A DNA stretch of 64,000 bases, taken from a virus. Shown piece by piece: positions 34,522-64,000 of the stretch. The position numbers and the translations under genes were made by a program. Under the pieces are notes generated by a model. That model was not told the origin of the DNA. It saw nothing but the letters and a program-made list of their open reading frames with translations, and searched no databases. Each line of letters begins with the position of its first letter. Position 1 is the stretch's first letter. The stretch lies in the IMG/VR virus record IMGVR_UViG_3300036790_000386, positions 37,928-101,927 of that record, one strand, 5' to 3'.

Positions 34522-37500
34522 TTAAATGTGTTTGTTTAAGGCTCGCGTACCTTTAGGTACGATCCAAGTTCCTGGCTTTAAGACTCTTTCTTCAAGATCG
34601 CACGGAAAAGTAATTTTTGATGGAGAAGATAAAAATAGAATTTCTTCATCAGCTTTCGGCTGTTCACGTCCACGACGAATTCTAATTTCATTCATGAGAT
34701 GAACTACCTTTGCAACCTCTACTCTTTCTTTCCAACTTTCATATCTTGCAGTTTGTATTGCAAGCTGTTGTTCTTTGTCAATTTTAGCTTTACGTGCAAG
34801 TTTCTGCCATGTGGCCCATGTGCCACGACATGAAGTGACAATAAGACCAGCAACACACCTAGCAAGGTAATCAGATCCAGAGGAAAATACAGAATCGCGA
34901 CCTGCTTTAGTTATTGAACGTTCAAGATCGCCCATTTGATTGAGCATCTTAGCGTTTTCTAAGAGTTCTACTTCACCAGCCGCCAAAATTGGCATGAAAT
35001 CACGATAGATTTCAGGAAGCGTTAAAGAAGTTGGACTATAGATGATACCGTGAACGGAGAAATATTCTTTGGGCCAATTTCCACCAAAGTGATCACCTTC
35101 AATCTTTGCGATGCCATAGCTGCGCATAATAGAGCATATGTCAGCAATAGTTTTTTCAAGACTTTCTTGAATCGAATAATCTTTAACAAAATCTAACATC
35201 GCTACATTATCTTCAGCCATATGTGCGATAGCAAATGCTGGCCTCTCTGACGTTGACCCCGGTACGGCGAAGAAAGCAGAGTAAACTATGTTATTTGAAG
35301 GTGGCAGTTCAAGCCGGCCTTCAACTACGCAACGACCAATAACCCCACGCGAAGCATAAGAGGATTTAGTGAAGCTAGCTTTAATTTCATTCCACTTATA
35401 GCGCGCAAACGCCAAAGAGCAAACACAATCATCGTAAAGACCCTCGGGTGCTGTATATTTGATACCAGCGCGAGTGATTTCATAAGTGAAATCCTGCATT
35501 TCAGATTTAATCGGACCATCAGGAAAATGCACTTCATGAGTCTGAACCGACATCGCCAAACCTTCCATGAGGTTTTGCTTGGATGACGGATTTAAAATAT
35601 AACCTTCAAAGTTTTCGTAACCACCTTCTTGGAGTGACTCTAAAACTGGATCACCTAGCCCTGAACCATCAACAACACAAGGAGTGAGGTCACCAACGAT
35701 TTCTCTAACGAGTTTAACTGACTCTTTCCAAGATTTATTTTTCCAGCGATCAAAGTGGCAAACATAGCCATCTCGATCAAGACCAATGATAACGAACCAA
35801 GTTTTTTTACGAGCTAGATCAACTCCCCAAGCCACAGGAGACTCAGAACTAAGATTAGCAACACAGCGTAAAATATGGTCTTCACCGAATGGATTACCGT
35901 AATCGTCACTCGGCTCTGCAAGATAAAGTTCACGAAATACCGCATCTGGAAGTTGCTCTTTTAGGGATTTAACTTCAGAGTCTGACATAACACCACCTTC
36001 GATGGCGTCAAAAATTGTCAGTTTTGCGTAATGTAAATCGCTATCTTCTTCGTCCATCGTGGACTCAGCAAGACGCGCCATATTATAGAACCAGTTACGC
36101 TTTCCTTTAACGTTACCAATAATGATAGCAGCGCCTTGAGTCGCTGAAAGCGTAGAGCGAACAGCGTGCCAGGATAATTCCTTTACACGCGAAGCTTCAT
36201 CAATAACAGCACCATAAACATCTTCACCGAAAAGAGAATCAGGATTATCACCTGATTTAAACCAAAGAACAGCGCCATTCATTAAAGTTATTGTTTTGCG
36301 TTGTTCGTTAGTCATATAGCTGCCAGGAGTTAAATAGGTCTTCAACCGGCGAAAGGCAATATCAGCTTGATCTGAAATTGGAGCAACCCACCAATAGTTT
36401 CTATTGGTTGGGCCAAGCAAAGCCATTTCGGTAATCCAAACAATGGAACCGACGGTGTTATGTGTTGGTACGAAACCATTTGTAAGATACAGGTGTCTTG
36501 TATCTTCAACTTCAATACATTGCGCCTCCGCAATTCTAGAAAATTCAATTTTATTGAAAAATCTATTTCCAGTCTTCTTCATAGGCTTCATTAATTGAAG
36601 TTTACGAGGAAGCCTAAATGGAATAAGATTAGATGGCAAAATTAAAACTTGACGATAACGACCTCTACCGTGGCGCAATGTTCCAATTGGACTGCAATAT
36701 GACGCAGACTCATCATAAGTCTGTTTAACCATACCTCCTAAAGATTCTACAAGTTCTTTCACATCTTTTGCAAGTTGTTCAGAACTTTGTTCTAAGATTG
36801 GTTGGCCATGTTTATTTACTGATCCATCTGAATCCATAATTCCCTGAAGAATAGAAATTCTAATTTCCGTGGAATTATAAAGATAGGATATCGGAATAAA
36901 TTTCTGGTGAGAATAACAACCCCACAATTTCAGATTTTTTAAATAGCTGGCTATGTGTTGTTTTGCCTCTCTTATTTTAGCGGCAAATTTTCCACATGTA
37001 ATATGATAATCATACTGGTCTACGTGCCGCAAAAAATGGCCAGCAGGTAAGACTTTTTTAATTTCTTCTAAAATTTCAAAATCAGCAGAAGAAACTCTCA
37101 CAACTTCAGTTGTAAAATTGCCATCGCCAATAAGAATCCCTAAAAGATAAGGATCAATATCTATAGATTTAATTTCAAATTCAACTGGAGCACAATCAGG
37201 AACATATTGATACCTGAGCCAGCTACTTTTAAGATCTAAAAGTTCAGAAACTGCCCTAATTCTTGGTTTACCTTGATTATTATGAACTTCCCAAAGATGT
37301 TCTTTGTCGCATTCAACAATAGTTCCATCAACAAAAGTTATAGCATAAATCTCGCGCAAACCTTGCGGATGTATGGCTACAATTTTAGTAGCTTTACCAT
37401 TAGCTCCAAAAACAAAATCACCTACTTTCAGGTCTCCCATAAGTTTGGGACCTGCTGGTGTATAAATTTTTGAATCTAAAGGTTGAGCTTTACCTGCTTT

Positions 37501-37590
37501 TGAAGTTGCTTCAACTAGGGTAAATCGTTTGCCCGAAAATAGAGCGGCCTCTTGTTTCGGATACAACCCTGGTCTTGAATATTCAGGCAC
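34522..37590 (-). CDS. terL: Terminase large subunit with intein and degenerate second nuclease domain
   Basis: 1022 residues from a GTG. The Walker A motif EATSKAGK/T is interrupted after Lys34 by an intein (residues 35-378). The ATPase continues with WWVAPISDQADIAFRRL and Walker B AVIDEA (461-466). The packaging nuclease has WGVDLARKKTWFVIIG (Asp591), CVVDGSG (Asp641) and GLYDDCVCSLAFA (Asp720/721). Beyond it, residues 768-918 look like a second terminase nuclease fold (AFAIAHMAEDN, IEGDHFGGNWPKEYF, AAGEVELLENAKMLNQMGDL, GSDYLARCVAG) in which expected metal ligands are missing. Cleaves and translocates DNA into the prohead. Confidence 0.9.
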   Translation of the reverse strand: MPEYSRPGLYPKQEAALFSGKRFTLVEATSKAGKAQPLDSKIYTPAGPKLMGDLKVGDFVFGANGKATKIVAIHPQGLREIYAITFVDGTIVECDKEHLWEVHNNQGKPRIRAVSELLDLKSSWLRYQYVPDCAPVEFEIKSIDIDPYLLGILIGDGNFTTEVVRVSSADFEILEEIKKVLPAGHFLRHVDQYDYHITCGKFAAKIREAKQHIASYLKNLKLWGCYSHQKFIPISYLYNSTEIRISILQGIMDSDGSVNKHGQPILEQSSEQLAKDVKELVESLGGMVKQTYDESASYCSPIGTLRHGRGRYRQVLILPSNLIPFRLPRKLQLMKPMKKTGNRFFNKIEFSRIAEAQCIEVEDTRHLYLTNGFVPTHNTVGSIVWITEMALLGPTNRNYWWVAPISDQADIAFRRLKTYLTPGSYMTNEQRKTITLMNGAVLWFKSGDNPDSLFGEDVYGAVIDEASRVKELSWHAVRSTLSATQGAAIIIGNVKGKRNWFYNMARLAESTMDEEDSDLHYAKLTIFDAIEGGVMSDSEVKSLKEQLPDAVFRELYLAEPSDDYGNPFGEDHILRCVANLSSESPVAWGVDLARKKTWFVIIGLDRDGYVCHFDRWKNKSWKESVKLVREIVGDLTPCVVDGSGLGDPVLESLQEGGYENFEGYILNPSSKQNLMEGLAMSVQTHEVHFPDGPIKSEMQDFTYEITRAGIKYTAPEGLYDDCVCSLAFARYKWNEIKASFTKSSYASRGVIGRCVVEGRLELPPSNNIVYSAFFAVPGSTSERPAFAIAHMAEDNVAMLDFVKDYSIQESLEKTIADICSIMRSYGIAKIEGDHFGGNWPKEYFSVHGIIYSPTSLTLPEIYRDFMPILAAGEVELLENAKMLNQMGDLERSITKAGRDSVFSSGSDYLARCVAGLIVTSCRGTWATWQKLARKAKIDKEQQLAIQTARYESWKERVEVAKVVHLMNEIRIRRGREQPKADEEILFLSSPSKITFPCDLEERVLKPGTWIVPKGTRALNKHI
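36457..37488 (-). mobile_element. Intein with LAGLIDADG homing endonuclease in TerL
   Basis: 344 residues in frame. It begins AQPLDSKIYTPAG (Ala1 instead of Cys/Ser, seen in several phage inteins), has a splicing block B (GTIVECDKEHLWEV), two LAGLIDADG-type helices (YLLGILIGDGN at 148-158 and ILQGIMDSDGS at 247-257) and the terminal block LYLTNGFVPTHN followed by Thr379 of the host protein. Splicing would restore KAGKTVGSIVW and so the ATP-binding loop. Confidence 0.9.
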
Positions 37591-58018: not shown

Positions 58019-58049
58019 GATAAAACAGTTTAATTTTAAAATAATTCAG

Positions 58050-58121
58050 TTTATGGTGAATTAGTTGCGAGAAGGGCCTGTGATTAATTCCGTAAGTGCA
58101 GCTAGCCCCTGTAACCATAAA
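58050..58121 (+). ncRNA. Structured RNA-like unit, 72 nt (possible Y RNA relative)
   Basis: TTTATGGT and ACCATAAA close an 8-bp stem; inside, GGGC/GCCC and CTG/CAG could pair. Length equals that of the next unit, but the TAGCGTAGA motif is absent, so its membership is unsure. Confidence 0.35.
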
Positions 58122-58128
58122 GTTTAAT

Positions 58129-58200
58129 AAATATGCAGTAGCGTAGATTAGAATTTCATCATTGTACGAAAGATTCTATTCGCTTAATCTCTGCATATTT
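58129..58200 (+). ncRNA. Y RNA-like unit, short hairpin form 1
   Basis: AAATATGCAG and CTGCATATTT form a perfect 10-bp closing stem. Just inside lie TAGCGTAGA (5' side) and CGCTTAATCT (3' side), then a second stem TAGAAT/ATTCTA with an 18-base loop. AGCG and CGCT can pair, leaving TAATCT bulged. No T-arm. The two motifs repeat in the tRNA-like units further on. Confidence 0.6.
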
Positions 58201-58265
58201 AAATCTGAAATATACGAGCCAAGTACATAAGCAATAACTAGATAGTCGCGAAAGTGGCAATCTTA

Positions 58266-58335
58266 TCAAGCGGTAGCGTTAGATTGCAGTTACTTCAATG
58301 GATGAAAACAACTGTAATTGATTATTCTCCGTTGA
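58266..58335 (+). ncRNA. Y RNA-like unit, short hairpin form 2
   Basis: TCAA(G)CGG and CCGTTGA form a 7-bp stem with one bulged G. Inside are TAGCGTTAGATT on the 5' side and TTGATTATTCT on the 3' side, and an inner stem TTGCAGTT/AACTGTAA. Same plan and nearly the same length as the unit at 58129, with diverged motifs. Confidence 0.5.
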
Positions 58336-58740
58336 CTGAACTAGTGACCATATAGCGTCTGTGTGAGTTGCCATAGCCTATAATCAATTAAGACGCATTG
58401 GAAATTTAATCTACAAATGTATAATAATAACATTAGTAATGAAACCAGCAAGCAACACAAAAATAAATCAACAATTGTTTGCTGGTTCTTTTCAAACACC
58501 AATTTTAAATAACGCTGCAATAGCGTTCCACAGCGAGAATTCACTACTATAGTCAGTGCTTCTCTCTGTAGACAATCCTTTGCAAAAATCAAATACCACA
58601 GTATAAAGCGGATTTTTTAAAAATCGGCTAACGTGACTAGAAATCCGATTCATATCTTAACATACGTGTAATCGCTGCGTAATCTTTAAGTCATTTTTCT
58701 CTAAATCAGCCTATAGTTGTATTTCATCCTGTAAAGTAAA
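58336..58740 (+). other. Non-coding stretch of the RNA island with several hairpins
   Basis: No convincing gene. Visible: GCGTCT/AGACGC paired across about 30 bases near 58355-58405, the large hairpin at 58443, AACGC/GCGTT near 58508, and CGGATTT/AAATCCG near 58605-58650. Any of these may be further RNAs, but they lack the shared Y RNA-like motifs. Confidence 0.35.
58443..58493 (+). terminator. Terminator-like hairpin inside RNA island
   Basis: AACCAGCAAGCAA and TTGTTTGCTGGTT pair over 13 bases with one G-T pair around a 19-base A-rich loop, followed by CTTTTC. Could end a transcript of the first RNA units. Confidence 0.55.
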
Positions 58741-58804
58741 ATTATAGAACGTAGTGCATCTATTGTACATACAATCCCTCTAGGCTTTCTGTAGAAGCTA
58801 TAAT
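58741..58804 (+). ncRNA. Structured unit of unknown type
   Basis: ATTATAG and CTATAAT close a 7-bp stem, with ATTGTA/TACAAT and CTA/TAG pairs inside. The shared TAGCGTAGA motif is absent. The first bases AAATTATAGAACG match the 3' end of repeat copy 4. Confidence 0.3.
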
Positions 58805-58856
58805 AACAGCCAGTTAGATATATGTTTCACTCCAACAATAGGCATAAACAAAACAA

Positions 58857-59063
58857 ATGGAATATAAAAAGATATCTCTAACTGACTTCAAAAATAAAGT
58901 TGGGCCAACTTTACAAGATGTAGAAAAGGCGCCAATCGCTTTAACTGCTTATGGCAGACCAGCTTACATGCTTCTATCGCTAGTTGAATACAACAGATTA
59001 AAAGAAGCTGAAAGCATTACAAATGAAATTTTCGGTAAAAACTTGAAAGAAAATAAAGTTTAA
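58857..59063 (+). CDS. Orphan Phd/YefM-type antitoxin
   Basis: 68 residues. KKISLTDFKNKVGPTLQDVE, KAPIALTAYGRPAYMLLSLV and EYNRLKEAE are the normal order of Phd/YefM antitoxins (DNA-binding N-terminus, toxin-binding tail). No toxin gene adjoins it. It sits among the Y RNA-like units. Possible roles: neutralising a host toxin or repressing transcription of the island. Confidence 0.7.
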   Translation: MEYKKISLTDFKNKVGPTLQDVEKAPIALTAYGRPAYMLLSLVEYNRLKEAESITNEIFGKNLKENKV

Positions 59064-59073
59064 AGATAAAATT

Positions 59074-59268
59074 TTGTGAGTAGCGTAGACTCTCGATTTC
59101 ATCGTAAACTTTTGTTTAATGCTGAAGTGGTTCGAATCCACCGTTAAATAAAGAAACCATTGATGAGAACCTCGTTCACAACGAAGTATTCAAAATGTGC
59201 TAACTTTTTTATTTAAACGGCTGCAAGCTTGGTGGGCAGCAATTTCGAGGTCGCATAATCTCTCACAA
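59074..59268 (+). ncRNA. YrlA-type Y RNA-like unit 1 (tRNA-like module, large)
   Basis: TTGTGAG and CTCACAA close a 7-bp stem. Inside are TAGCGTAGA (5') and CGCATAATCT (3'), then CTCGA/TCGAG. The module holds a T-arm (GTGG-TTCGAAT-CCAC, 59127-59141), an acceptor-like stem (GTTAAATAAA/TTTATTTAAAC, closed by an extra hairpin) and a D-arm (GCTG...CAGC around AAGCTTGGTGGG, 59220-59240). T-arm precedes D-arm, as in bacterial Y RNAs and unlike tRNA genes. About 60 nt longer than the other two. Confidence 0.7.
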
Positions 59269-59286
59269 CTTCAAATGGAAAACACT

Positions 59287-59376
59287 ATGAAAAAGTATTT
59301 TAATTGGATATTGCTCATTGTAAGCATATCTATAATAACAGGCTTTGTAAGTCACATTCACACCTCTTCGCATTAA
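59287..59376 (+). CDS. Tiny membrane peptide in RNA island
   Basis: 29 residues: MKKYFNWILLIVSISIITGF then VSHIHTSSH. A basic start and one hydrophobic helix, like a small toxin or membrane peptide. AATGGAAAAC lies upstream. Situated between two RNA units, which recalls type I toxin arrangements; this is only a suggestion. Confidence 0.45.
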   Translation: MKKYFNWILLIVSISIITGFVSHIHTSSH

Positions 59377-59378
59377 GC

Positions 59379-59510
59379 GGGAAGCCGCAGATCAACTTGT
59401 AAACTGAAGCGTAAAGATTAGTAAACTAGACGCAATCCAGCAGCATTGATAACTTGATAGTTCCATGTTTCATTGTGTTTGATCTACACAAATATCAAGC
59501 GCGGCTTTCC
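59379..59510 (+). ncRNA. Structured RNA-like unit with GGAAGCCGC closing stem
   Basis: GGAAGCCGC and GCGGCTTTCC close a stem of nine pairs with one bulge. Inside, AGATCAA pairs with TTGATCT, and GCGT pairs with ACGC around AAAGATTAG. AAGCGTAAAGATTAG is close to the TAGCGTAGATTAG of the Y-like units. Classification is uncertain. Confidence 0.4.
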
Positions 59511-59528
59511 ACCTAATATAAAGAAAAC

Positions 59529-59666
59529 TAATCAAGTAGCGTAGAAATGGATTTCTTCATGGTGACAATAGGTCGTTGGTTCAAATCCAACTAGCAAGGG
59601 ATACCTAGCTATAGCTCAGTCAGGTAGAGCGATTGTATAGAGCCTTTTCGTCTGATCTCTTGATTA
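59529..59666 (+). ncRNA. YrlA-type Y RNA-like unit 2 (tRNA-like module)
   Basis: TAATCAAG and CTTGATTA close an 8-bp stem with TAGCGTAGA inside on the 5' side and CGTCTGATCT on the 3' side. ACAAT/ATTGT forms the stem that replaces the anticodon stem. The T-arm is GTTGG-TTCAAAT-CCAAC (59575-59591). An acceptor-like stem TAGCAAGG/CCTAGCTA is closed by a GATA tetraloop instead of free ends with CCA. The D-arm is GCTC-AGTCAGGTA-GAGC (59614-59630). This is the clearest copy of the permuted tRNA mimic of Y RNAs. Confidence 0.75.
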
Positions 59667-59692
59667 AATTTAACTCCAACAAAAGTAACAAA

Positions 59693-59857
59693 ATGACAAA
59701 GAAAGAAGCTCTTAAATTAATTGACAACCACAAAAACAAACTTATTAATCCAACCGAAATGCTTTCTTGGGTATATTTGCGTGTCATCATTCTAAATCTA
59801 AATGATGAAGTCTGGAAAACAGCATATAACGAAGCTTTGAAAATTCTTTCAGCTTAA
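59693..59857 (+). CDS. Hypothetical small protein between RNA units
   Basis: 54 residues from ATG 59693. A longer frame to 59633 would run through the 3' part of the RNA unit and has no ribosome-binding site. KKEALKLIDNHKNKLINPTEMLSWVYLRVIILNLND. The N-terminal KEALKLIDNHKNKLINPTEML-type sequence recurs in small phage proteins. Function unknown. Confidence 0.5.
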   Translation: MTKKEALKLIDNHKNKLINPTEMLSWVYLRVIILNLNDEVWKTAYNEALKILSA

Positions 59858-59860
59858 CTG

Positions 59861-59996
59861 CTCAAGTAGCGTAGATTAGAGTTACTCCTTTACATGGACG
59901 GGTTGCGGGTTCGAATCCCGCTTAGAGTTGCTAAGCGTCTCTAATAGTTTAATTGGATAAAATACGTAAAAGACTCTGATCGAATAATCTCTTGGG
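59861..59996 (+). ncRNA. YrlA-type Y RNA-like unit 3 (tRNA-like module)
   Basis: CTCAAG and CTTGGG close a 6-bp stem (one G-T pair). TAGCGTAGA (5') and CGAATAATCT (3') lie just inside, followed by AGAGT/ACTCT. The T-arm is GCGGG-TTCGAAT-CCCGC (59905-59921), the acceptor-like stem TTAGAG/CTCTAA is closed by an 11-base loop, and the D-arm-like segment is TAGTTTAATTGGATAAAATA. At 136 nt it matches unit 2 in length and plan. Confidence 0.75.
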
Positions 59997-60006
59997 ACTA
60001 AAGTTA

Positions 60007-60093
60007 ACAGATAGCGTAAATTAGAGATACTTCTAAACACTCAGTCTGGAAACATGATTTTTCATGTAAAACTCTAATTGATTAAACTTCTGT
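60007..60093 (+). ncRNA. Y RNA-like unit, short hairpin form 3
   Basis: ACAGA/TCTGT closing stem, then TAGCGTAAA (5') and TTGATTAAACT (3'), an inner stem TTAGAG/CTCTAA, and an apical hairpin ACATGA/TCATGT. No T-arm or D-arm. Lies 10 bases after unit 3. Confidence 0.55.
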
Positions 60094-60195
60094 GAAGAGG
60101 TGGATTGACAACTGACACGAACCGACCACGCAAACGGGCACAGTGTTGGAATTGTAGATTAATTCCGCTTAAATCTTCATTAAAAATTGCTTAAA

Positions 60196-60272
60196 CTGCC
60201 TGTGGCGTAGCTTGGTAGCGCACTAGTTTTGGGTACTAGGGGTCGCAGGTTCAAATCCTGCCGGGCAGACCA
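60196..60272 (+). tRNA. tRNA-Pro (anticodon TGG), CCA encoded
   Basis: Acceptor CTGCCTG/CGGGCAG (one G-T pair), D-arm GCG-TAGCTTGGTA-GCGC, anticodon arm CTAGT-TTTGGGT-ACTAG with TGG, T-arm GCAGG-TTCAAAT-CCTGC, then A plus CCA. All arms are regular, in contrast to the permuted units just upstream. Confidence 0.95.
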
Positions 60273-60340
60273 ACTAAAGAGTATCGTGACGATTTTATGC
60301 CTCTTGGTGTGGCGAAATCTAGCATAAATAGGTGCAGATA

Positions 60341-60523
60341 ATGAGCGAAACTCTCGCTGCATTTTCAGATGCGGAACTGAAAGCGGAGCTTAGCCGGCGA
60401 AAAGAACTTAAGGACCAAGCGCATTGGGACACCCGGAAGGCCAATGCAAAATATCTCTGCCTCGGCTGCGGAACACCGGATAGCTGGCACACTCGCGGTT
60501 GCCCCATCGATACTTCTGGTTGA
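60341..60523 (+). CDS. Small zinc-finger protein
   Basis: 60 residues from ATG 60341 (a frame to 60332 exists). SDAELKAELSRRKELKDQAHWDTR is a helix, then CLGCGTPDSWHTRGC gives a Cys/His zinc site. Richer in G/C than the genes of 46-57 kb, and the first of a run of tiny, closely spaced genes. Confidence 0.55.
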   Translation: MSETLAAFSDAELKAELSRRKELKDQAHWDTRKANAKYLCLGCGTPDSWHTRGCPIDTSG

Positions 60524-60534
60524 AAGGACGAATT

Positions 60535-60666
60535 ATGAGGATCGTGGCGACATACCGACGCCAAGGCCATAGCGGGCAGGCGTGGCGGCTCCTGGAAAAC
60601 GGCGTCTGCCAGAGATGGTTTCCTCAGTTTTCGTTCTGGATTTACGCTAGAACATATGAAAAGTAG
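60535..60666 (+). CDS. Tiny basic protein
   Basis: 43 residues: MRIVATYRRQGHSGQAWRLL, then CQRWFPQFSFWIYARTYEK. AAAGGAC lies ten bases upstream. Aromatic and basic; no family recognised. Confidence 0.4.
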   Translation: MRIVATYRRQGHSGQAWRLLENGVCQRWFPQFSFWIYARTYEK

Positions 60667-60719
60667 TCCGCATCATGAGCATTTTAGCCCGAACCACCTG
60701 TGACAGAAAGATCAAATAA

Positions 60720-60833
60720 TTGAACCCATTCACGCCTTGGCAGCGTTTTACGTTGCGTGTGCTTATCTATTGGGATCGGTTCGTATGGGCGCTGTATCGG
60801 AAGCGCCAAGTTGATAGGAAGTACAATCCATGA
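60720..60833 (+). CDS. Possible tiny protein (TTG start)
   Basis: 37 residues: NPFTPWQRFTLRVLIYWDRF, then WALYRKRQVDRKYNP. No ATG in frame; the TTG is a guess. Its stop overlaps the next ATG (ATGA), as in the other genes of this cassette, which is the main support. Confidence 0.3.
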   Translation: MNPFTPWQRFTLRVLIYWDRFVWALYRKRQVDRKYNP

Positions 60834-61093
60834 GCAAAATAACCAATTTAAGGCAGCGAACGATTTCCGAGAAACATGTAGTAGGGATTGCGTGTGACGC
60901 CTGCCAAAAAGAAATTTCGGACGCGTATTTTGACGTTGTGACCAGTCACAGTGATTGGGGGAATGACAGTATCGACAGCGTTGAAAATTTCGATTTTTGC
61001 TCTCTCGAATGTCTTATGCCGCACATGTCTGCGTTTTTTAAAAAAGCCGGCGGAACAGAGCAATATGAAATTGAGAGAAAGACGTACAAATGA
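60830..61093 (+). CDS. Zinc-binding protein (Cys-rich)
   Basis: 87 residues. VVGIACDACQKEISDAYFDV and NFDFCSLECLMPHMSAFF give a CxxC...CxxxC arrangement, as in small treble-clef or MYM-like zinc proteins. ATGA overlaps on both sides. AGGAAG upstream. Confidence 0.55.
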   Translation: MSKITNLRQRTISEKHVVGIACDACQKEISDAYFDVVTSHSDWGNDSIDSVENFDFCSLECLMPHMSAFFKKAGGTEQYEIERKTYK

Positions 61094-61284
61094 GCCAACC
61101 AGAGCCTGGCATCATAAAAAAGATCTTTGATCGATTAGATGCTGGTTCTGCGCCAGGAGGTGGCGTTGCGTATTGCGCGCTTTGGCTGAGTGAGTTCAAA
61201 AAGACCATCCCATGGCAGTATTTTTTGAAGTGCGTACGTCGATGGGAATATCTTCGGAAAAATGCAAGGCAGTCCGTACCATGA
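61090..61284 (+). CDS. Hypothetical small protein
   Basis: 64 residues: SQPEPGIIKKIFDRLDAGSAPGGGVAYCALWLSEFKKTIPW, basic C-terminus. Coupled by ATGA at both ends. No family recognised. Confidence 0.45.
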   Translation: MSQPEPGIIKKIFDRLDAGSAPGGGVAYCALWLSEFKKTIPWQYFLKCVRRWEYLRKNARQSVP

Positions 61285-61457
61285 GCAAAAAGGACGGTGC
61301 AGAAAAGGCGTTGGATGCCATCCTGAACGACCCGTCTCTTAGGGAAGAGTTAGAGGGCTCCATAAAGGAGGGAAACCGGCCAGATACTGACAAGACAAAA
61401 GCGATTAGGGATGCGCTCTCTAAAATGCGGGAAGGCAGTAAAAGGAAGTTAAACTAA
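61281..61457 (+). CDS. Hypothetical small charged protein
   Basis: 58 residues from ATG 61281, which overlaps the preceding stop (a longer frame from 61212 would lie fully inside that gene). KKDGAEKALDAILNDPSLREELEGSIKEGN. No family recognised. Confidence 0.45.
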   Translation: MSKKDGAEKALDAILNDPSLREELEGSIKEGNRPDTDKTKAIRDALSKMREGSKRKLN

Positions 61458-61600
61458 TGAGCGCCACAGAATGGCTTATTGCGGGCGTGGTCATATTCAT
61501 GATTTTGGTGTGGGTCTTTAGCGAACCAAAATATCCAATGGGCGTTGGTGAGCGGCCGAAAACGTCCAAGCCAATACCCGCGAAAGGATACATCAAATGA
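61457..61600 (+). CDS. Small membrane protein
   Basis: 47 residues: MSATEWLIAGVVIFMILVWV is one membrane span, followed by a proline/lysine-rich tail. Coupled to its neighbours (TAATG, ATGA). Confidence 0.5.
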   Translation: MSATEWLIAGVVIFMILVWVFSEPKYPMGVGERPKTSKPIPAKGYIK

Positions 61601-61650
61601 GCCAAACTTTGTTGGAGGTCGGACAAACCTGGGTTGCTGATGGGTGTTAA
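61597..61650 (+). CDS. Possible 17-residue leader-like peptide
   Basis: MSQTLLEVGQTWVADGC, starting ATGA over the preceding stop and ending 10 bases inside the next frame. Kept because of the strict ATGA chain in this cassette; it may be only a coupling peptide. Confidence 0.25.
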   Translation: MSQTLLEVGQTWVADGC

Positions 61651-61915
61651 CATTTACATCGCCATCGAAGGATGGAATTCCTGCGCAAACGGCGGGATGA
61701 AAGAAATCTTTCGGAATGACGAGAAGTTCCCCAAGGTATATCGTCCATCTGTTCCAGGATCAGACCCTGGCGACTATGACGACGATTTCCGGCCATCCGA
61801 TTTCGTAAAATGGCGCGAATCAATCTTAGCGCAAAACATAAACGTCGAGATGTGGATGCGCGCCATAGACGCCATGGAAGCCGAGCCTGATCTATGGGCA
61901 GGGGCGTCGTCTTAA
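61640..61915 (+). CDS. Hypothetical acidic protein
   Basis: 91 residues from ATG 61640. VNIYIAIEGWNSCANGGMKE, PSVPGSDPGDYDDDFRPSDFVKWRES. Last gene of the cassette; the tRNA-Thr follows after 34 bases. No family recognised. Confidence 0.45.
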   Translation: MGVNIYIAIEGWNSCANGGMKEIFRNDEKFPKVYRPSVPGSDPGDYDDDFRPSDFVKWRESILAQNINVEMWMRAIDAMEAEPDLWAGASS

Positions 61916-61949
61916 CCGAATTCAACAACTGCCGCGCAGATAAATGAGC

Positions 61950-62024
61950 GCTGGATTAGCACAATGGCAGTGCAGTGGTTTTGTAAACCGAAGGTTGCGG
62001 GTTCGATTCCTGCATCCAGCACCA
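61950..62024 (+). tRNA. tRNA-Thr (anticodon TGT), CCA encoded
   Basis: Acceptor GCTGGAT/ATCCAGC, D-arm GCAC-AATGGCA-GTGC, anticodon loop TTTGTAA (TGT), T-arm GCGGG-TTCGATT-CCTGC, then A plus CCA. The first anticodon-stem pair is a mismatch, otherwise canonical. Confidence 0.93.
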
Positions 62025-62096
62025 AATTCTGCCAGAGACACCGATATCTGGGTAAGCAGAATAATTCGGTTATATCAACAGAGAGTAACTTAAAAT

Positions 62097-62462
62097 ATGC
62101 GTAAATTCTTTCTTGCAACTGCACTAGCTTCACTTTTTGGAACTGTCGCTCTTGCTTCGCCTCCTTCTTTCAATATCTCCAGTGGTAGTTCTCTTTCGCT
62201 TGGGTCTGGTTCTGAATCTATTTCAAGTGCTGAAGCAGGATCTCCAACGCAAACAACTTTTGCATTTTCTGGCAATATTGGCACGGGTACAACAACAATT
62301 TCCGCAGACAACCTTGGTGGAACTTCGACTTCGACTTCTTTCAATCTCGGCGGCAGTCTTGCATCTCCGGGTGCGAACGCCAATGAAAATGGTATCTCTT
62401 ATGGCCAAGCATCTCTGACAAATACTTTCAACACAAATCTTAACGGCTTCGCTCCTTTCTAA
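62097..62462 (+). CDS. Secreted low-complexity protein
   Basis: 121 residues with a Sec signal peptide (RKFFLATALASLFGTVALAS). The mature part is rich in S, T, G and N (SSGSSLSLGSGSESISSAEA). No family recognised. Its gene opens a short rightward run of two secreted proteins before the Ro60 gene. Confidence 0.5.
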   Translation: MRKFFLATALASLFGTVALASPPSFNISSGSSLSLGSGSESISSAEAGSPTQTTFAFSGNIGTGTTTISADNLGGTSTSTSFNLGGSLASPGANANENGISYGQASLTNTFNTNLNGFAPF

Positions 62463-62540
62463 CTATCAATCAAACAACACCAAACAAAGGATTCGGCCGG
62501 AAGAAGACTATCTCTTCCGGCTATCTCAGCAGGGGACCAA

Positions 62541-63161
62541 ATGCGTAAAATTGTTATTGGCTCTATTCTAAGCCTCCTTTTAGCTTCTCCTTCATTCGCT
62601 TCATCAACAACAACTTCAACTTCAGGCTCCGAATCAGTAGGTGCTGCCAGCATCATTCAAAATTCTACTGGCGCTAGTGGTGTTAACTATTCAGGTGGCT
62701 ACACAGTTCGCAATACTCCAGATCTTGGAGGACTAACAGCTATTCCATCTGCCAATTGCATGGGTGTTGATGGTATTGGTCTTGTTGGTCCAGGTGGCGG
62801 CCTCCAGCTTCTTGGTTCCAGACGTGATAGTGTTTGTACTTGGGAAGGTAAAGTTAATATGGCTGTTCATACCGGCCAACCCCAAGTTGGTCTTGTTATG
62901 TGGTGTATTAATGACCCAGATTATCGCAAAGCTCGCGAAATTTTAAATGAGCCTTGCCCGATTGCAAGTTATCCAAAAGGGCAGCAAGCTAAACTCCTAG
63001 AACAGATTGCTAAAGTTCAAACTCCAGCACCACAGCCCAAACAGACAGTAATCATCGAAATTGTTCCGGTGCCTATGTCAATCAATAAAAAAGTTACAGC
63101 TGATGATCTCAATAGAGAAATGCTTCAAGATATAAAAAACAGTAAGCAGCACAACGAATAA
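62541..63161 (+). CDS. Secreted protein with Cys pairs
   Basis: 206 residues; signal peptide RKIVIGSILSLLLASPSFAS. Then a S/T-rich stretch, SANCMGVDGIGLVGPGGGLQLLGS, DSVCTWEGKVNMA, QVGLVMWCINDP and NEPCPIASYPKGQQ, so four cysteines likely form two disulfides. The VGPGGGLQLLGSRRD-type block recurs in phage secreted/virion proteins of unknown role. Ends in a charged tail. AGGGGAC upstream. Confidence 0.55.
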   Translation: MRKIVIGSILSLLLASPSFASSTTTSTSGSESVGAASIIQNSTGASGVNYSGGYTVRNTPDLGGLTAIPSANCMGVDGIGLVGPGGGLQLLGSRRDSVCTWEGKVNMAVHTGQPQVGLVMWCINDPDYRKAREILNEPCPIASYPKGQQAKLLEQIAKVQTPAPQPKQTVIIEIVPVPMSINKKVTADDLNREMLQDIKNSKQHNE

Positions 63162-63189
63162 AAAAAACAACGCATAAACTAGAATCTTC

Positions 63190-63225
63190 ATGCCCAACGA
63201 AATTATATCTTAGTTGGGCATTTTA
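63190..63225 (+). terminator. Rho-independent terminator
   Basis: ATGCCCAAC and GTTGGGCAT form a 9-bp stem around a 14-base loop, followed by TTTTAA. It separates the secreted-protein operon from the Ro60 gene 28 bases on, so that gene may have its own promoter or read-through control. Confidence 0.8.
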
Positions 63226-63252
63226 ACCTATAGCAAAACTTAGGAAATTGAA

Positions 63253-64000
63253 GTGAAGAGCAATATAAAAAAGGAAACTGAAGTTAATTTTACACATGAA
63301 GGTGCGCGTGCAGCAAACATCAATGCAGAGCAGCAACTGCGCCGGTCTGTTATGAATTGCCTTCTCTTTGAGAAAGAATTCTACGAAGACGGTGTTGAAA
63401 TTGCTAATCGCATTAAATCTCTTGTTGCACAAGTTTCTCCGTCCAAGGTTGCAGCTATCGCAATCCAAGCCCGAGATGAAATGCATCTTCGCCATGTACC
63501 GCTCTACTTGGTTGCCTGCCTTGCAGGAGTTACCAGTGGCACAAATCTCGTATCCAACACGCTTGCACACGTTATTCAACGTGCTGATGAACTTTCTGAG
63601 TTTCTTGCCATTTATGCCAAAGTGAATGGAGTCAAGCCAAGCGAAATCAAACCGAAACTATCAAATCAAGTACGCAAGGGCCTTGCACAAGCTTTTACCA
63701 AATTCAGCGCTTACTCCCTAGGTAAATATAACCGAGACGCTGAAATCAAGCTTAGAGATGCGCTTTTTCTTTCACACGCTAAACCAAAAGACGCAGAACA
63801 AGCTCTCACCTGGAAGAAGCTAATAGACGGCACTCTTGAAACTCCTGATACTTGGGAAGTTTCTCTTTCCAGCGGAGCCGATAAAAAGGAAACATTTGAG
63901 CGATTAATTAAAGAAGGCAAGCTTGGCTATTTTGCCCTCATCCGCAATCTGCGCAACATGAGCGAAGCACATTGTGATTTTTCTTTGGTTCATGAAGCAA
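63253..64000 (+). CDS. rsr: Ro60/TROVE-domain protein (partial, C-terminus beyond window)
   Basis: 249 residues visible from a GTG with AGGAAA upstream; no stop before the window end. RRSVMNCLLFEKEFYEDGVE is the signature of the TROVE domain. Further matching blocks: AIQARDEMHLRHVPLYLVAC, HVIQRADELSEFLAIYAK, KGLAQAFTKFSAYSLGKYNR, TWKKLIDGTLETPDTWEV and YFALIRNLRNM. Ro60 forms a HEAT-repeat ring that binds Y RNAs on the outside and free 3' ends of misfolded RNAs in the hole. A C-terminal VWA domain would be expected beyond the window. Its genomic neighbours include the Y RNA-like cluster 3-5 kb upstream. Confidence 0.9.
   Translation, partial: MKSNIKKETEVNFTHEGARAANINAEQQLRRSVMNCLLFEKEFYEDGVEIANRIKSLVAQVSPSKVAAIAIQARDEMHLRHVPLYLVACLAGVTSGTNLVSNTLAHVIQRADELSEFLAIYAKVNGVKPSEIKPKLSNQVRKGLAQAFTKFSAYSLGKYNRDAEIKLRDALFLSHAKPKDAEQALTWKKLIDGTLETPDTWEVSLSSGADKKETFERLIKEGKLGYFALIRNLRNMSEAHCDFSLVHEA

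What the first reader, a model, noticed from the sequence alone, without database searches (positions are those of the whole stretch)
58129..64000. Phage Ro60 system with an expanded, mixed family of Y RNA-like RNAs
A TROVE/Ro60 gene starts at 63253. Between 58.1 and 60.1 kb there are six units with a closing stem, TAGCG(T)TAGA or a close variant on the 5' side and a TNATCT/TGATTA-type motif on the 3' side. Three of them hold T-arm, closed acceptor and D-arm in the permuted order of YrlA-type Y RNAs; three are short hairpins. Single Y RNAs next to bacterial or phage Ro60 genes are known; six or more diverse ones in one locus, of two architectures, is unusual. This could be a multi-specific RNA surveillance, tRNA-decoy or anti-defence RNP.
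Basis: partly seen in the sequence, partly recalled or inferred. Interest (0 to 1): 0.95.

Follow-up and report, generated by a model that had tools for sequence, protein, structure and literature searches.

The report
Phage Ro60 with six Y RNAs
This phage carries a ring-shaped RNA-handling protein (Ro60) and six different small RNAs that almost certainly bind it; such sets turn out to be common in related phages and some bacteria, where they are unannotated or mistaken for tRNAs.

Summary
Window 58129-60093 has six non-coding units, U1-U6; Ro60 starts at 63253 and is complete across the closed contig ends. A motif-plus-helix scanner finds exactly these six in the 102-kb genome, both strands, and none in 20 shuffled genomes. 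All six share one Ro-site: outer helix, bulged U, 2 bp, CGUA opposite a 7-nt loop, inner helix. Covariance models built only from relatives detect five of six (U4 E=2e-23). Covariation is very strong (0.72 and 0.75 versus 0.21 shuffled). The relatives' motif alone finds 26 stretches in 2.9 million viral contigs; 25 carry Ro60, against 0 of 14 for the reversed motif. U3, U4 and U5 are permuted tRNA mimics (YrlA-type); U1, U2 and U6 are hairpins.

That such an array is unusual is not supported: the median is 3 units per locus, 8 of 68 loci have 6-8 (including Caulobacter phages CcrColossus and CcrPW), and mixed architectures are the rule. What is odd here is that the array lies 3.2 kb from Ro60, versus 0-0.3 kb in relatives. 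Most likely function: several Ro60-Y RNA particles that gate the ring or tether a host nuclease. That function is inferred, not shown.

The parts
58129..58200 (+). U1: short Y RNA hairpin (outer helix AAATATGCAG/CTGCATATTT, bulged U, AG:CU, CGUA x GCUUAAU loop, inner helix)
   Evidence: scanner 57.1; relatives-only hairpin model R1, 37.4 bits, E=1e-8
58266..58335 (+). U2: short Y RNA hairpin with the TTACTTC element; 5' loop is CGUUA (one extra U)
   Evidence: 51.0; R1 46.6 bits, E=1.6e-11
59074..59268 (+). U3: long (about 195 nt) YrlA-type unit: T-arm 59127-59141, extended acceptor-like stem with inserted hairpins, D-arm 59220-59240
   Evidence: 47.2; for arms; not found whole by the covariance models, so it rests on motif, geometry and arms
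59530..59665 (+). U4: YrlA-type tRNA mimic: T-arm 59575-59591, closed acceptor-like stem 59592-59611, D-arm 59614-59630
   Evidence: relatives-only model R2, 98.6 bits, E=2.3e-23; Rfam YrlA 29.2 bits, below gathering score
59861..59996 (+). U5: YrlA-type tRNA mimic: T-arm 59905-59921, acceptor-like stem 59922-59944, AT-rich D-arm 59945-59963
   Evidence: R2 83.9 bits, E=1.5e-19; Rfam YrlA 29.1 bits; borderline Rfam tRNA match 59860-59929 (30 bits)
60007..60093 (+). U6: hairpin Y RNA with an extra internal stem-loop; TAGCGTAAA variant with a compensating A-U at the inner helix
   Evidence: 40.1; R2 33.9 bits, filters off; R1 18.7 bits
63253..64000 (+). Ro60 (TROVE plus vWA) gene, 5' part; continues at contig start, 459 aa in all, DVSGSM metal site intact
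   Evidence: a relative's fold matches phage phiLo Ro60, vertebrate Ro60 and Deinococcus Rsr
60196..62024 (+). Not part of the system: GC-rich (46-50%) block bounded by tRNA-Pro(TGG) and tRNA-Thr(TGT) that lies between array and Ro60; possible later insertion

Best explanation
A phage-encoded Ro60-Y RNA system in which one Ro60 ring is served by six paralogous Y RNAs. Each Y RNA presents the same Ro60-binding stem to the outside of the ring but carries a different insert: a short hairpin (U1, U2, U6) or a permuted tRNA-like domain with T-arm, closed acceptor stem and D-arm (U3, U4, U5). Most likely mechanism: all six compete for one Ro60, giving a mixed pool of particles. Hairpin forms mainly stabilise the ring and gate its RNA-binding face. 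tRNA-like forms also tether a host partner that recognises tRNA elbows or structured RNA, most plausibly host PNPase as in Deinococcus RYPER, because neither this phage nor the relatives searched encode an RNase PH-type enzyme. The particle would then bind loose 3' ends of misfolded or damaged structured RNA during infection and hand them to decay (or shield them). Shown: the units, their common Ro-site, their covariation and their near-exclusive linkage to Ro60. Inferred: transcription, physical binding, gating versus tethering roles, and the host partner.
For: Exactly six units genome-wide, none in shuffled genomes. Covariance models built from relatives only find U1, U2, U4, U5 and U6. Covariation scores 0.716 and 0.751 against 0.207 shuffled and at most 0.18 when slid. 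GG:CC in most relatives is replaced by AG:CU in all six window units. RNA motif alone predicts Ro60: 25 of 26 stretches against 0 of 14 for the reversed motif; the window-type motif gave 12 of 18 records. The Ro-site loop is more alike within a locus than between loci (3.55 against 5.30 differences, 0 of 2000 permutations), as expected for RNAs that share one protein or arose by local duplication. A relative's Ro60 fold matches Ro60 and Rsr structures. PNPase tethering and gating by Y RNA are established in Deinococcus (PMC4726728, PMC8394870). No conserved neighbour gene other than Ro60, so partners are probably host-encoded. In the P100-like Listeria phage CKA15, putative ncRNA loci near an Rsr-like gene give 7-34% of all transcripts and the Rsr-like protein was found in virions (PMC12282133).
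Against: No transcription or binding data for this phage; promoter-like sites are not above the shuffled expectation (14 found, 12.7 expected). The array lies 3.2 kb from Ro60, so co-expression is not assured. The host and its PNPase are unknown. U3 is not found by the models. The abundant Listeria RNAs may instead be ROOL RNA, which lies in the corresponding P100 region.
Confidence: 0.6

Rival explanations
1. tRNA decoy or anti-defence: the tRNA-like units titrate host enzymes or defence nucleases that act on tRNAs, and Ro60 serves to stabilise and display them.
For: Elbow elements are intact in U3-U5 (GG in the D-loop, TTCRA in the T-loop). The phage also carries real tRNA genes. Salmonella work proposes competitive inhibition of an anticodon nuclease by YrlA (PMC7790460).
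Against: No anticodon arm, and the acceptor end is closed by a loop. 96 of 201 units have no tRNA feature and 27 only a T-arm. The same arrays occur in alphaproteobacterial genomes. Salmonella YrlA fragments were not detected after tRNA cleavage (PMC7790460).
Confidence: 0.18
2. RNA-repair arm: Ro60-Y RNA holds broken tRNAs or rRNA for ligation (RtcB-type repair) rather than for decay.
For: RtcB lies directly downstream of Ro60 in phage contig L010/G005 and is also encoded by CcrColossus and Bambus. In Salmonella rsr-yrl genes sit with rtcBA (PMC7790460). A jumbo-phage review links TROVE proteins with RNA repair (PMC7824862).
Against: RtcB is absent from 15 of the 18 phage records searched, this genome included (some records are fragments). 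No conserved repair gene next to Ro60.
Confidence: 0.12
3. Degenerate tRNA cluster, terminators or chance hairpins with no link to Ro60.
For: The region is AT-rich and contains other structured stretches without the motif. One unit scores marginally as a tRNA in Rfam.
Against: Covariation, models from relatives, and the 25/26 versus 0/14 linkage to Ro60.
Confidence: 0.02

Closest known systems
Bacterial Y RNA YrlA (Rfam RF02553) with Rsr/Ro60, e.g. Salmonella, Mycobacterium, Deinococcus
   Same: U3-U5: long stem made by the two ends, asymmetric internal loop, then T-arm, closed acceptor-like stem and D-arm in permuted order; Ro60 gene nearby on the same strand.
   Different: Scores 29 bits against a gathering score of 69; no viral relative examined reaches it either (best 48.6). 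Own Ro-site consensus (bulged U, GG:CC or AG:CU, CGUA x GNNURUU).
Non-tRNA bacterial Y RNAs (YrlB-like), from own knowledge and PMC7790460
   Same: Short Y RNAs accompany the tRNA-like one near Ro60.
   Different: Here about 70 nt (55 nt between Ro-site blocks), with a TTACTTC element shared with the tRNA-like units; sequence homology to YrlB not tested.
Y RNA arrays of Caulobacter phages CcrColossus and CcrPW, Brevundimonas phages Bambus and Gurke, Xanthomonas phages, and Hyphomonadaceae genomes (found here)
   Same: Same Ro-site, both architectures, 4-8 units, Ro60 at 49-55% identity.
   Different: Their arrays end 0-0.3 kb before Ro60; here 3.2 kb. Several of their units are annotated as tRNA-Gln, -Ser or -Thr.
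Vertebrate Y RNA and Ro60
   Same: Ro60 site on the terminal stem with a single bulged base and an asymmetric loop (PMC4726728, PMC4030889).
   Different: Bulged base is U in 117 of 126 units and C in 9, against a conserved C in vertebrates.
Thermus phage phiLo Ro60 (PDB 9l5y)
   Same: Nearest solved structure by sequence and by fold.
   Different: About 25% identity; its Y RNAs were not examined here.

Membership tests
Ro60/Rsr (TROVE) protein | TROVE domain over Pfam cut-off | tested here: met
   57.7 bits against 23
Ro60/Rsr (TROVE) protein | HEAT-repeat ring closed by a vWA domain with metal site | tested here: met
   Model of L006 relative (58% identical), pLDDT 84.8; best matches are all Ro60/Rsr structures, TM 0.59-0.72; DVSGSM nearly invariant and present in the window's protein. 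The window protein itself was not folded.
Ro60/Rsr (TROVE) protein | Binds Y RNA | not testable with these tools
   needs purified protein and RNA
YrlA (RF02553) | Rfam gathering score of 69 bits | tested here: not met
   29.2 and 29.1 bits for U4 and U5; 0 of 32 viral records over it
YrlA (RF02553) | Permuted T-arm, closed acceptor stem, D-arm on a terminal stem | tested here: met
   U3, U4, U5; helices covary across relatives
YrlA (RF02553) | tRNA-type modification by tRNA enzymes | not testable with these tools
   target positions present; needs biochemistry
Bacterial Y RNA in the broad sense | Genetic linkage to Ro60 | tested here: met
   25 of 26 motif-bearing viral stretches against 0 of 14 control
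Bacterial Y RNA in the broad sense | Terminal stem with bulged base and asymmetric internal loop under covariation | tested here: met
RYPER (Ro60-Y RNA-PNPase) | PNPase tethered by Y RNA | not testable with these tools
   no RNase PH-family gene in this phage or in the 17 other phage records searched; a host PNPase would be needed
rsr-yrl-rtcBA repair operon | RtcB in the same operon | tested here: not met
   absent from this genome

The most novel reading that the evidence does not exclude
The array is a modular adaptor set: one Ro60 ring accepts interchangeable Y RNAs whose inserts (hairpin, T-arm only, full tRNA mimic) recruit different host factors, so the phage tunes several RNA-processing or counter-defence activities with one protein. 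The particle could even be packaged in the virion, as the Rsr-like protein of Listeria phage CKA15 appears to be.
Probability: 0.25. Interest if true: 0.8.

Novelty: new variant of a known kind. Interest (0 to 1): 0.5.

Why it matters
Ro60 RNPs have been known for decades, but why a ring would need several Y RNAs and what phages use them for is open. The comparison here gives a sequence-structure definition of a phage/alphaproteobacterial Y RNA subfamily that Rfam's YrlA model misses, shows arrays of up to eight units of three architectures per Ro60, and shows that the RNA motif alone predicts Ro60. It also shows that such RNAs are annotated as tRNAs in deposited phage genomes. Because cultured phages (CcrColossus on Caulobacter crescentus) carry eight-unit arrays, the roles of hairpin and tRNA-like Y RNAs become directly testable by genetics.

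Tried and rejected
Rfam: no family reaches its gathering score for the island except a marginal tRNA hit; YrlA is sub-threshold. A plain TAGCGT search in relatives failed because relatives use GTGGCGTAGA; the consensus was then taken from their tRNA-like units. Two further structured stretches of the island (58040-58125 and 59374-59518) lack the Ro-site and were not counted. Promoter and terminator scans gave nothing above shuffles. Island DNA has no match in the phage collection. The conserved-neighbour search found only Ro60. PNPase/RNase PH and RtcB are absent from this genome. The scanner found no unit of this class next to the Rsr-like gene of Listeria phage P100, but three tandem hairpins with a different shared motif are visible there. 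Key papers (Chen 2014, Sim 2018 and 2020) are not in the library, so how many Y RNAs per locus have been reported could not be checked.
Full report
WHERE IT IS. The window is bases 37928-101927 of a 101,927-bp viral contig. The contig's first and last 127 bases are identical, so it closes into a circle of about 101.8 kb. The Ro60 gene that leaves the window at 64000 is complete (459 aa) across that junction. It is a tailed phage: terminase, portal, capsid, baseplate and tail-fibre-type ORFs are visible, and its nearest isolate capsid is 56% identical, in Edwardsiella phage ZHS. The host is unknown.

THE OBSERVATION. Six units lie at 58129-60093 on the + strand. I derived block matrices mainly from the tRNA-like units of relatives (23 training units plus four window variants) and combined them with outer-helix and inner-helix scores. 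In the 102-kb genome, both strands, this finds exactly the six units and nothing else, and it finds nothing in 20 dinucleotide-shuffled genomes. Because four window variants were in the training set, the independent test is a pair of covariance models built from relatives only. R1 (hairpins) finds U2 (46.6 bits, E=1.6e-11) and U1 (37.4 bits, 1e-8). R2 (tRNA-like) finds U4 (98.6 bits, 2e-23) and U5 (83.9 bits, 1.5e-19). With filters off, R2 finds U6 (33.9 bits). U3, about 195 nt with a long acceptor-like insert, is supported by motif, geometry and its two tRNA arms only.

ANATOMY. All units share: outer helix; one bulged base (U in 117 of 126 units, C in 9); two base pairs (mostly GG:CC, but AG:CU in all six window units); a 4 x 7 internal loop (CGUA opposite GNNURUU, with small variants in the window); an inner helix; and in most units a TTACTTC element. 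The two-base-pair segment was not scored as pairs by the scanner, so its covariation (GC/AU and GC/CG/UA/AU) is independent evidence. Formal counts on the alignments: 90.7% and 94.2% of cells paired, covariation scores 0.716 and 0.751 against 0.207 for shuffles, at most 0.18 when slid, 0 of 500 shuffles as high. U3, U4 and U5 then hold T-arm, closed acceptor-like stem and D-arm, with the elbow letters intact but no anticodon arm and no free 3' end. U1, U2 and U6 are hairpins.

LINK TO RO60. A search of 2.9 million viral contigs with the relatives' consensus motif alone (GTGGCGTAGA-N4-GGTTACTTC) gave 26 stretches, of which 25 encode Ro60. The same kind of pattern reversed gave 14 stretches, none with Ro60. 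The window-type pattern gave 18 stretches: 11 encode Ro60 on the same strand nearby and a twelfth elsewhere in the record. A few of these contigs had already been met in the protein search, and some helped to train the motif, so the counts are not wholly independent of it. Within a locus the loop of the Ro-site is more alike than between loci (3.55 against 5.30 differences, none of 2000 permutations as low). This fits one protein shared by all the RNAs of a locus, or local duplication, or both.

HOW UNUSUAL. In 68 loci (some near-duplicates) I count 201 units: 96 hairpins, 78 with T-arm and D-arm, 27 with a T-arm only; the classifier is rough and calls U5 T-only because its D-arm is AT-rich. 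The median is 3 per locus and eight loci have 6-8. CcrColossus and CcrPW have 8, Gurke 6, Bambus 5; Hyphomonadaceae and other alphaproteobacterial loci have 5-7; contig L105 has 8. So six units of mixed architecture is at the upper end but not exceptional. What is unusual here is position. In 39 relatives the last unit ends within about 0.3 kb of Ro60; here it is 3.2 kb away, the six units are spread over 2 kb with two small ORFs between them, and a GC-rich block bounded by two real tRNA genes lies in the gap.

PROTEIN. The window's Ro60 is a TROVE plus vWA protein. The predicted structure of its L006 relative (pLDDT 84.8) matches Ro60 of Thermus phage phiLo best, then vertebrate Ro60 and Deinococcus Rsr.

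MECHANISM. Established elsewhere: in Deinococcus, Y RNA tethers Rsr to PNPase and gates it (PMC4726728, PMC8394870). Neither this phage nor the other 17 phage records searched encode an RNase PH-family enzyme, and only 3 of 18 encode RtcB, so a partner would be the host's. I therefore favour a pool of Ro60 particles in which hairpin Y RNAs stabilise and gate the ring and tRNA-like ones also tether a host factor. Identity as a Ro60-Y RNA system: about 0.95. Binding of all six to this Ro60: about 0.85. The gate/tether division and PNPase: about 0.4. The overall figure of 0.6 blends these. Decoy and repair readings remain open but explain fewer of the features.

PRECEDENT FOR EXPRESSION. In the P100-like Listeria phage CKA15, two putative ncRNA loci upstream of an Rsr-like gene give 7-34% of all transcripts and 67% of phage transcripts at 40 min, and the Rsr-like protein is in virions (PMC12282133). 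In P100 itself the corresponding protein, gp165, matches DUF2828/DUF7788, and its upstream region holds a ROOL RNA match (86 bits, gathering score 99.1) and three tandem hairpins with a shared CAGCAATTACTA-type motif. That gp165 corresponds to CKA15_055 is my inference from size and position. So the abundant RNAs could be ROOL, Y-like RNAs, or both.

NOVELTY. Phage Ro60 and Y RNAs, including mixed tRNA-like and other Y RNAs, are known in outline (Chen et al. 2014, from memory; the paper is not in the library; PMC12282133 cites it for bacteria and mycobacteriophages, and PMC7765460 notes phage YrlA). The subfamily consensus, the failure of Rfam YrlA to reach its threshold in any of 32 viral records, the T-arm-only class, and arrays of up to eight were not described in anything I could read. 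I rate it a new variant of a known kind, with the caveat that the key reviews could not be opened; if they already report such arrays, it is a new member of a known kind.

Noticed in passing
L037:4149-4216, L039:4766-4840, L040:4831-4898: GenBank annotates parts of YrlA-type Y RNAs as tRNA-Gln (CcrColossus), tRNA-Ser (Gurke) and tRNA-Thr (Xanthomonas phage 10KY502B); a tRNA-Leu next to Ro60 in Microcystis phage Mvi-JY20 (L042:4879-4963) may be another case.
   Followed up: partly
window 58857-59063: Phd/YefM antitoxin-like ORF (Pfam PF02604, 30.1 bits) inside the Y RNA island, no toxin partner seen; an inverted repeat (about 58811-58885) surrounds its start.
   Followed up: no
window 60196-62024: GC-rich (46-50%) block bounded by tRNA-Pro and tRNA-Thr between array and Ro60, in a region otherwise 33-45% GC; looks like an insertion that separated array from Ro60.
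   Followed up: partly
window 58040-58125 and 59374-59518: Two more structured non-coding stretches (8-bp and 10-bp closing stems) without the Ro-site motif.
   Followed up: partly
window 62097-62462 and 62541-63161: Two ORFs just upstream of Ro60 with similar signal-peptide-like N-termini (MRKFFLATALA..., MRKIVIGSILS...); no Pfam match.
   Followed up: no
L010 (G005:3147-4289): RtcB RNA ligase gene directly downstream of Ro60 in a phage contig, a phage counterpart of the bacterial rsr-yrl-rtcB arrangement.
   Followed up: no
L048:38092-39700 (Listeria phage P100): Upstream of the Rsr-like gp165: a ROOL RNA match (86 bits, below its gathering score) and three tandem hairpins with a shared CAGCAATTACTA-type motif, perhaps a different Y RNA class.
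   Followed up: partly
L084, L088, L090: Three control contigs share a lone unit-like hit (score 42.2) without Ro60 nearby: an orphan Y-like RNA or a false positive.
   Followed up: no
window 34522-37590 and L004:10850-12784: Terminase-like and DNA-polymerase-like ORFs appear to contain inteins.
   Followed up: no
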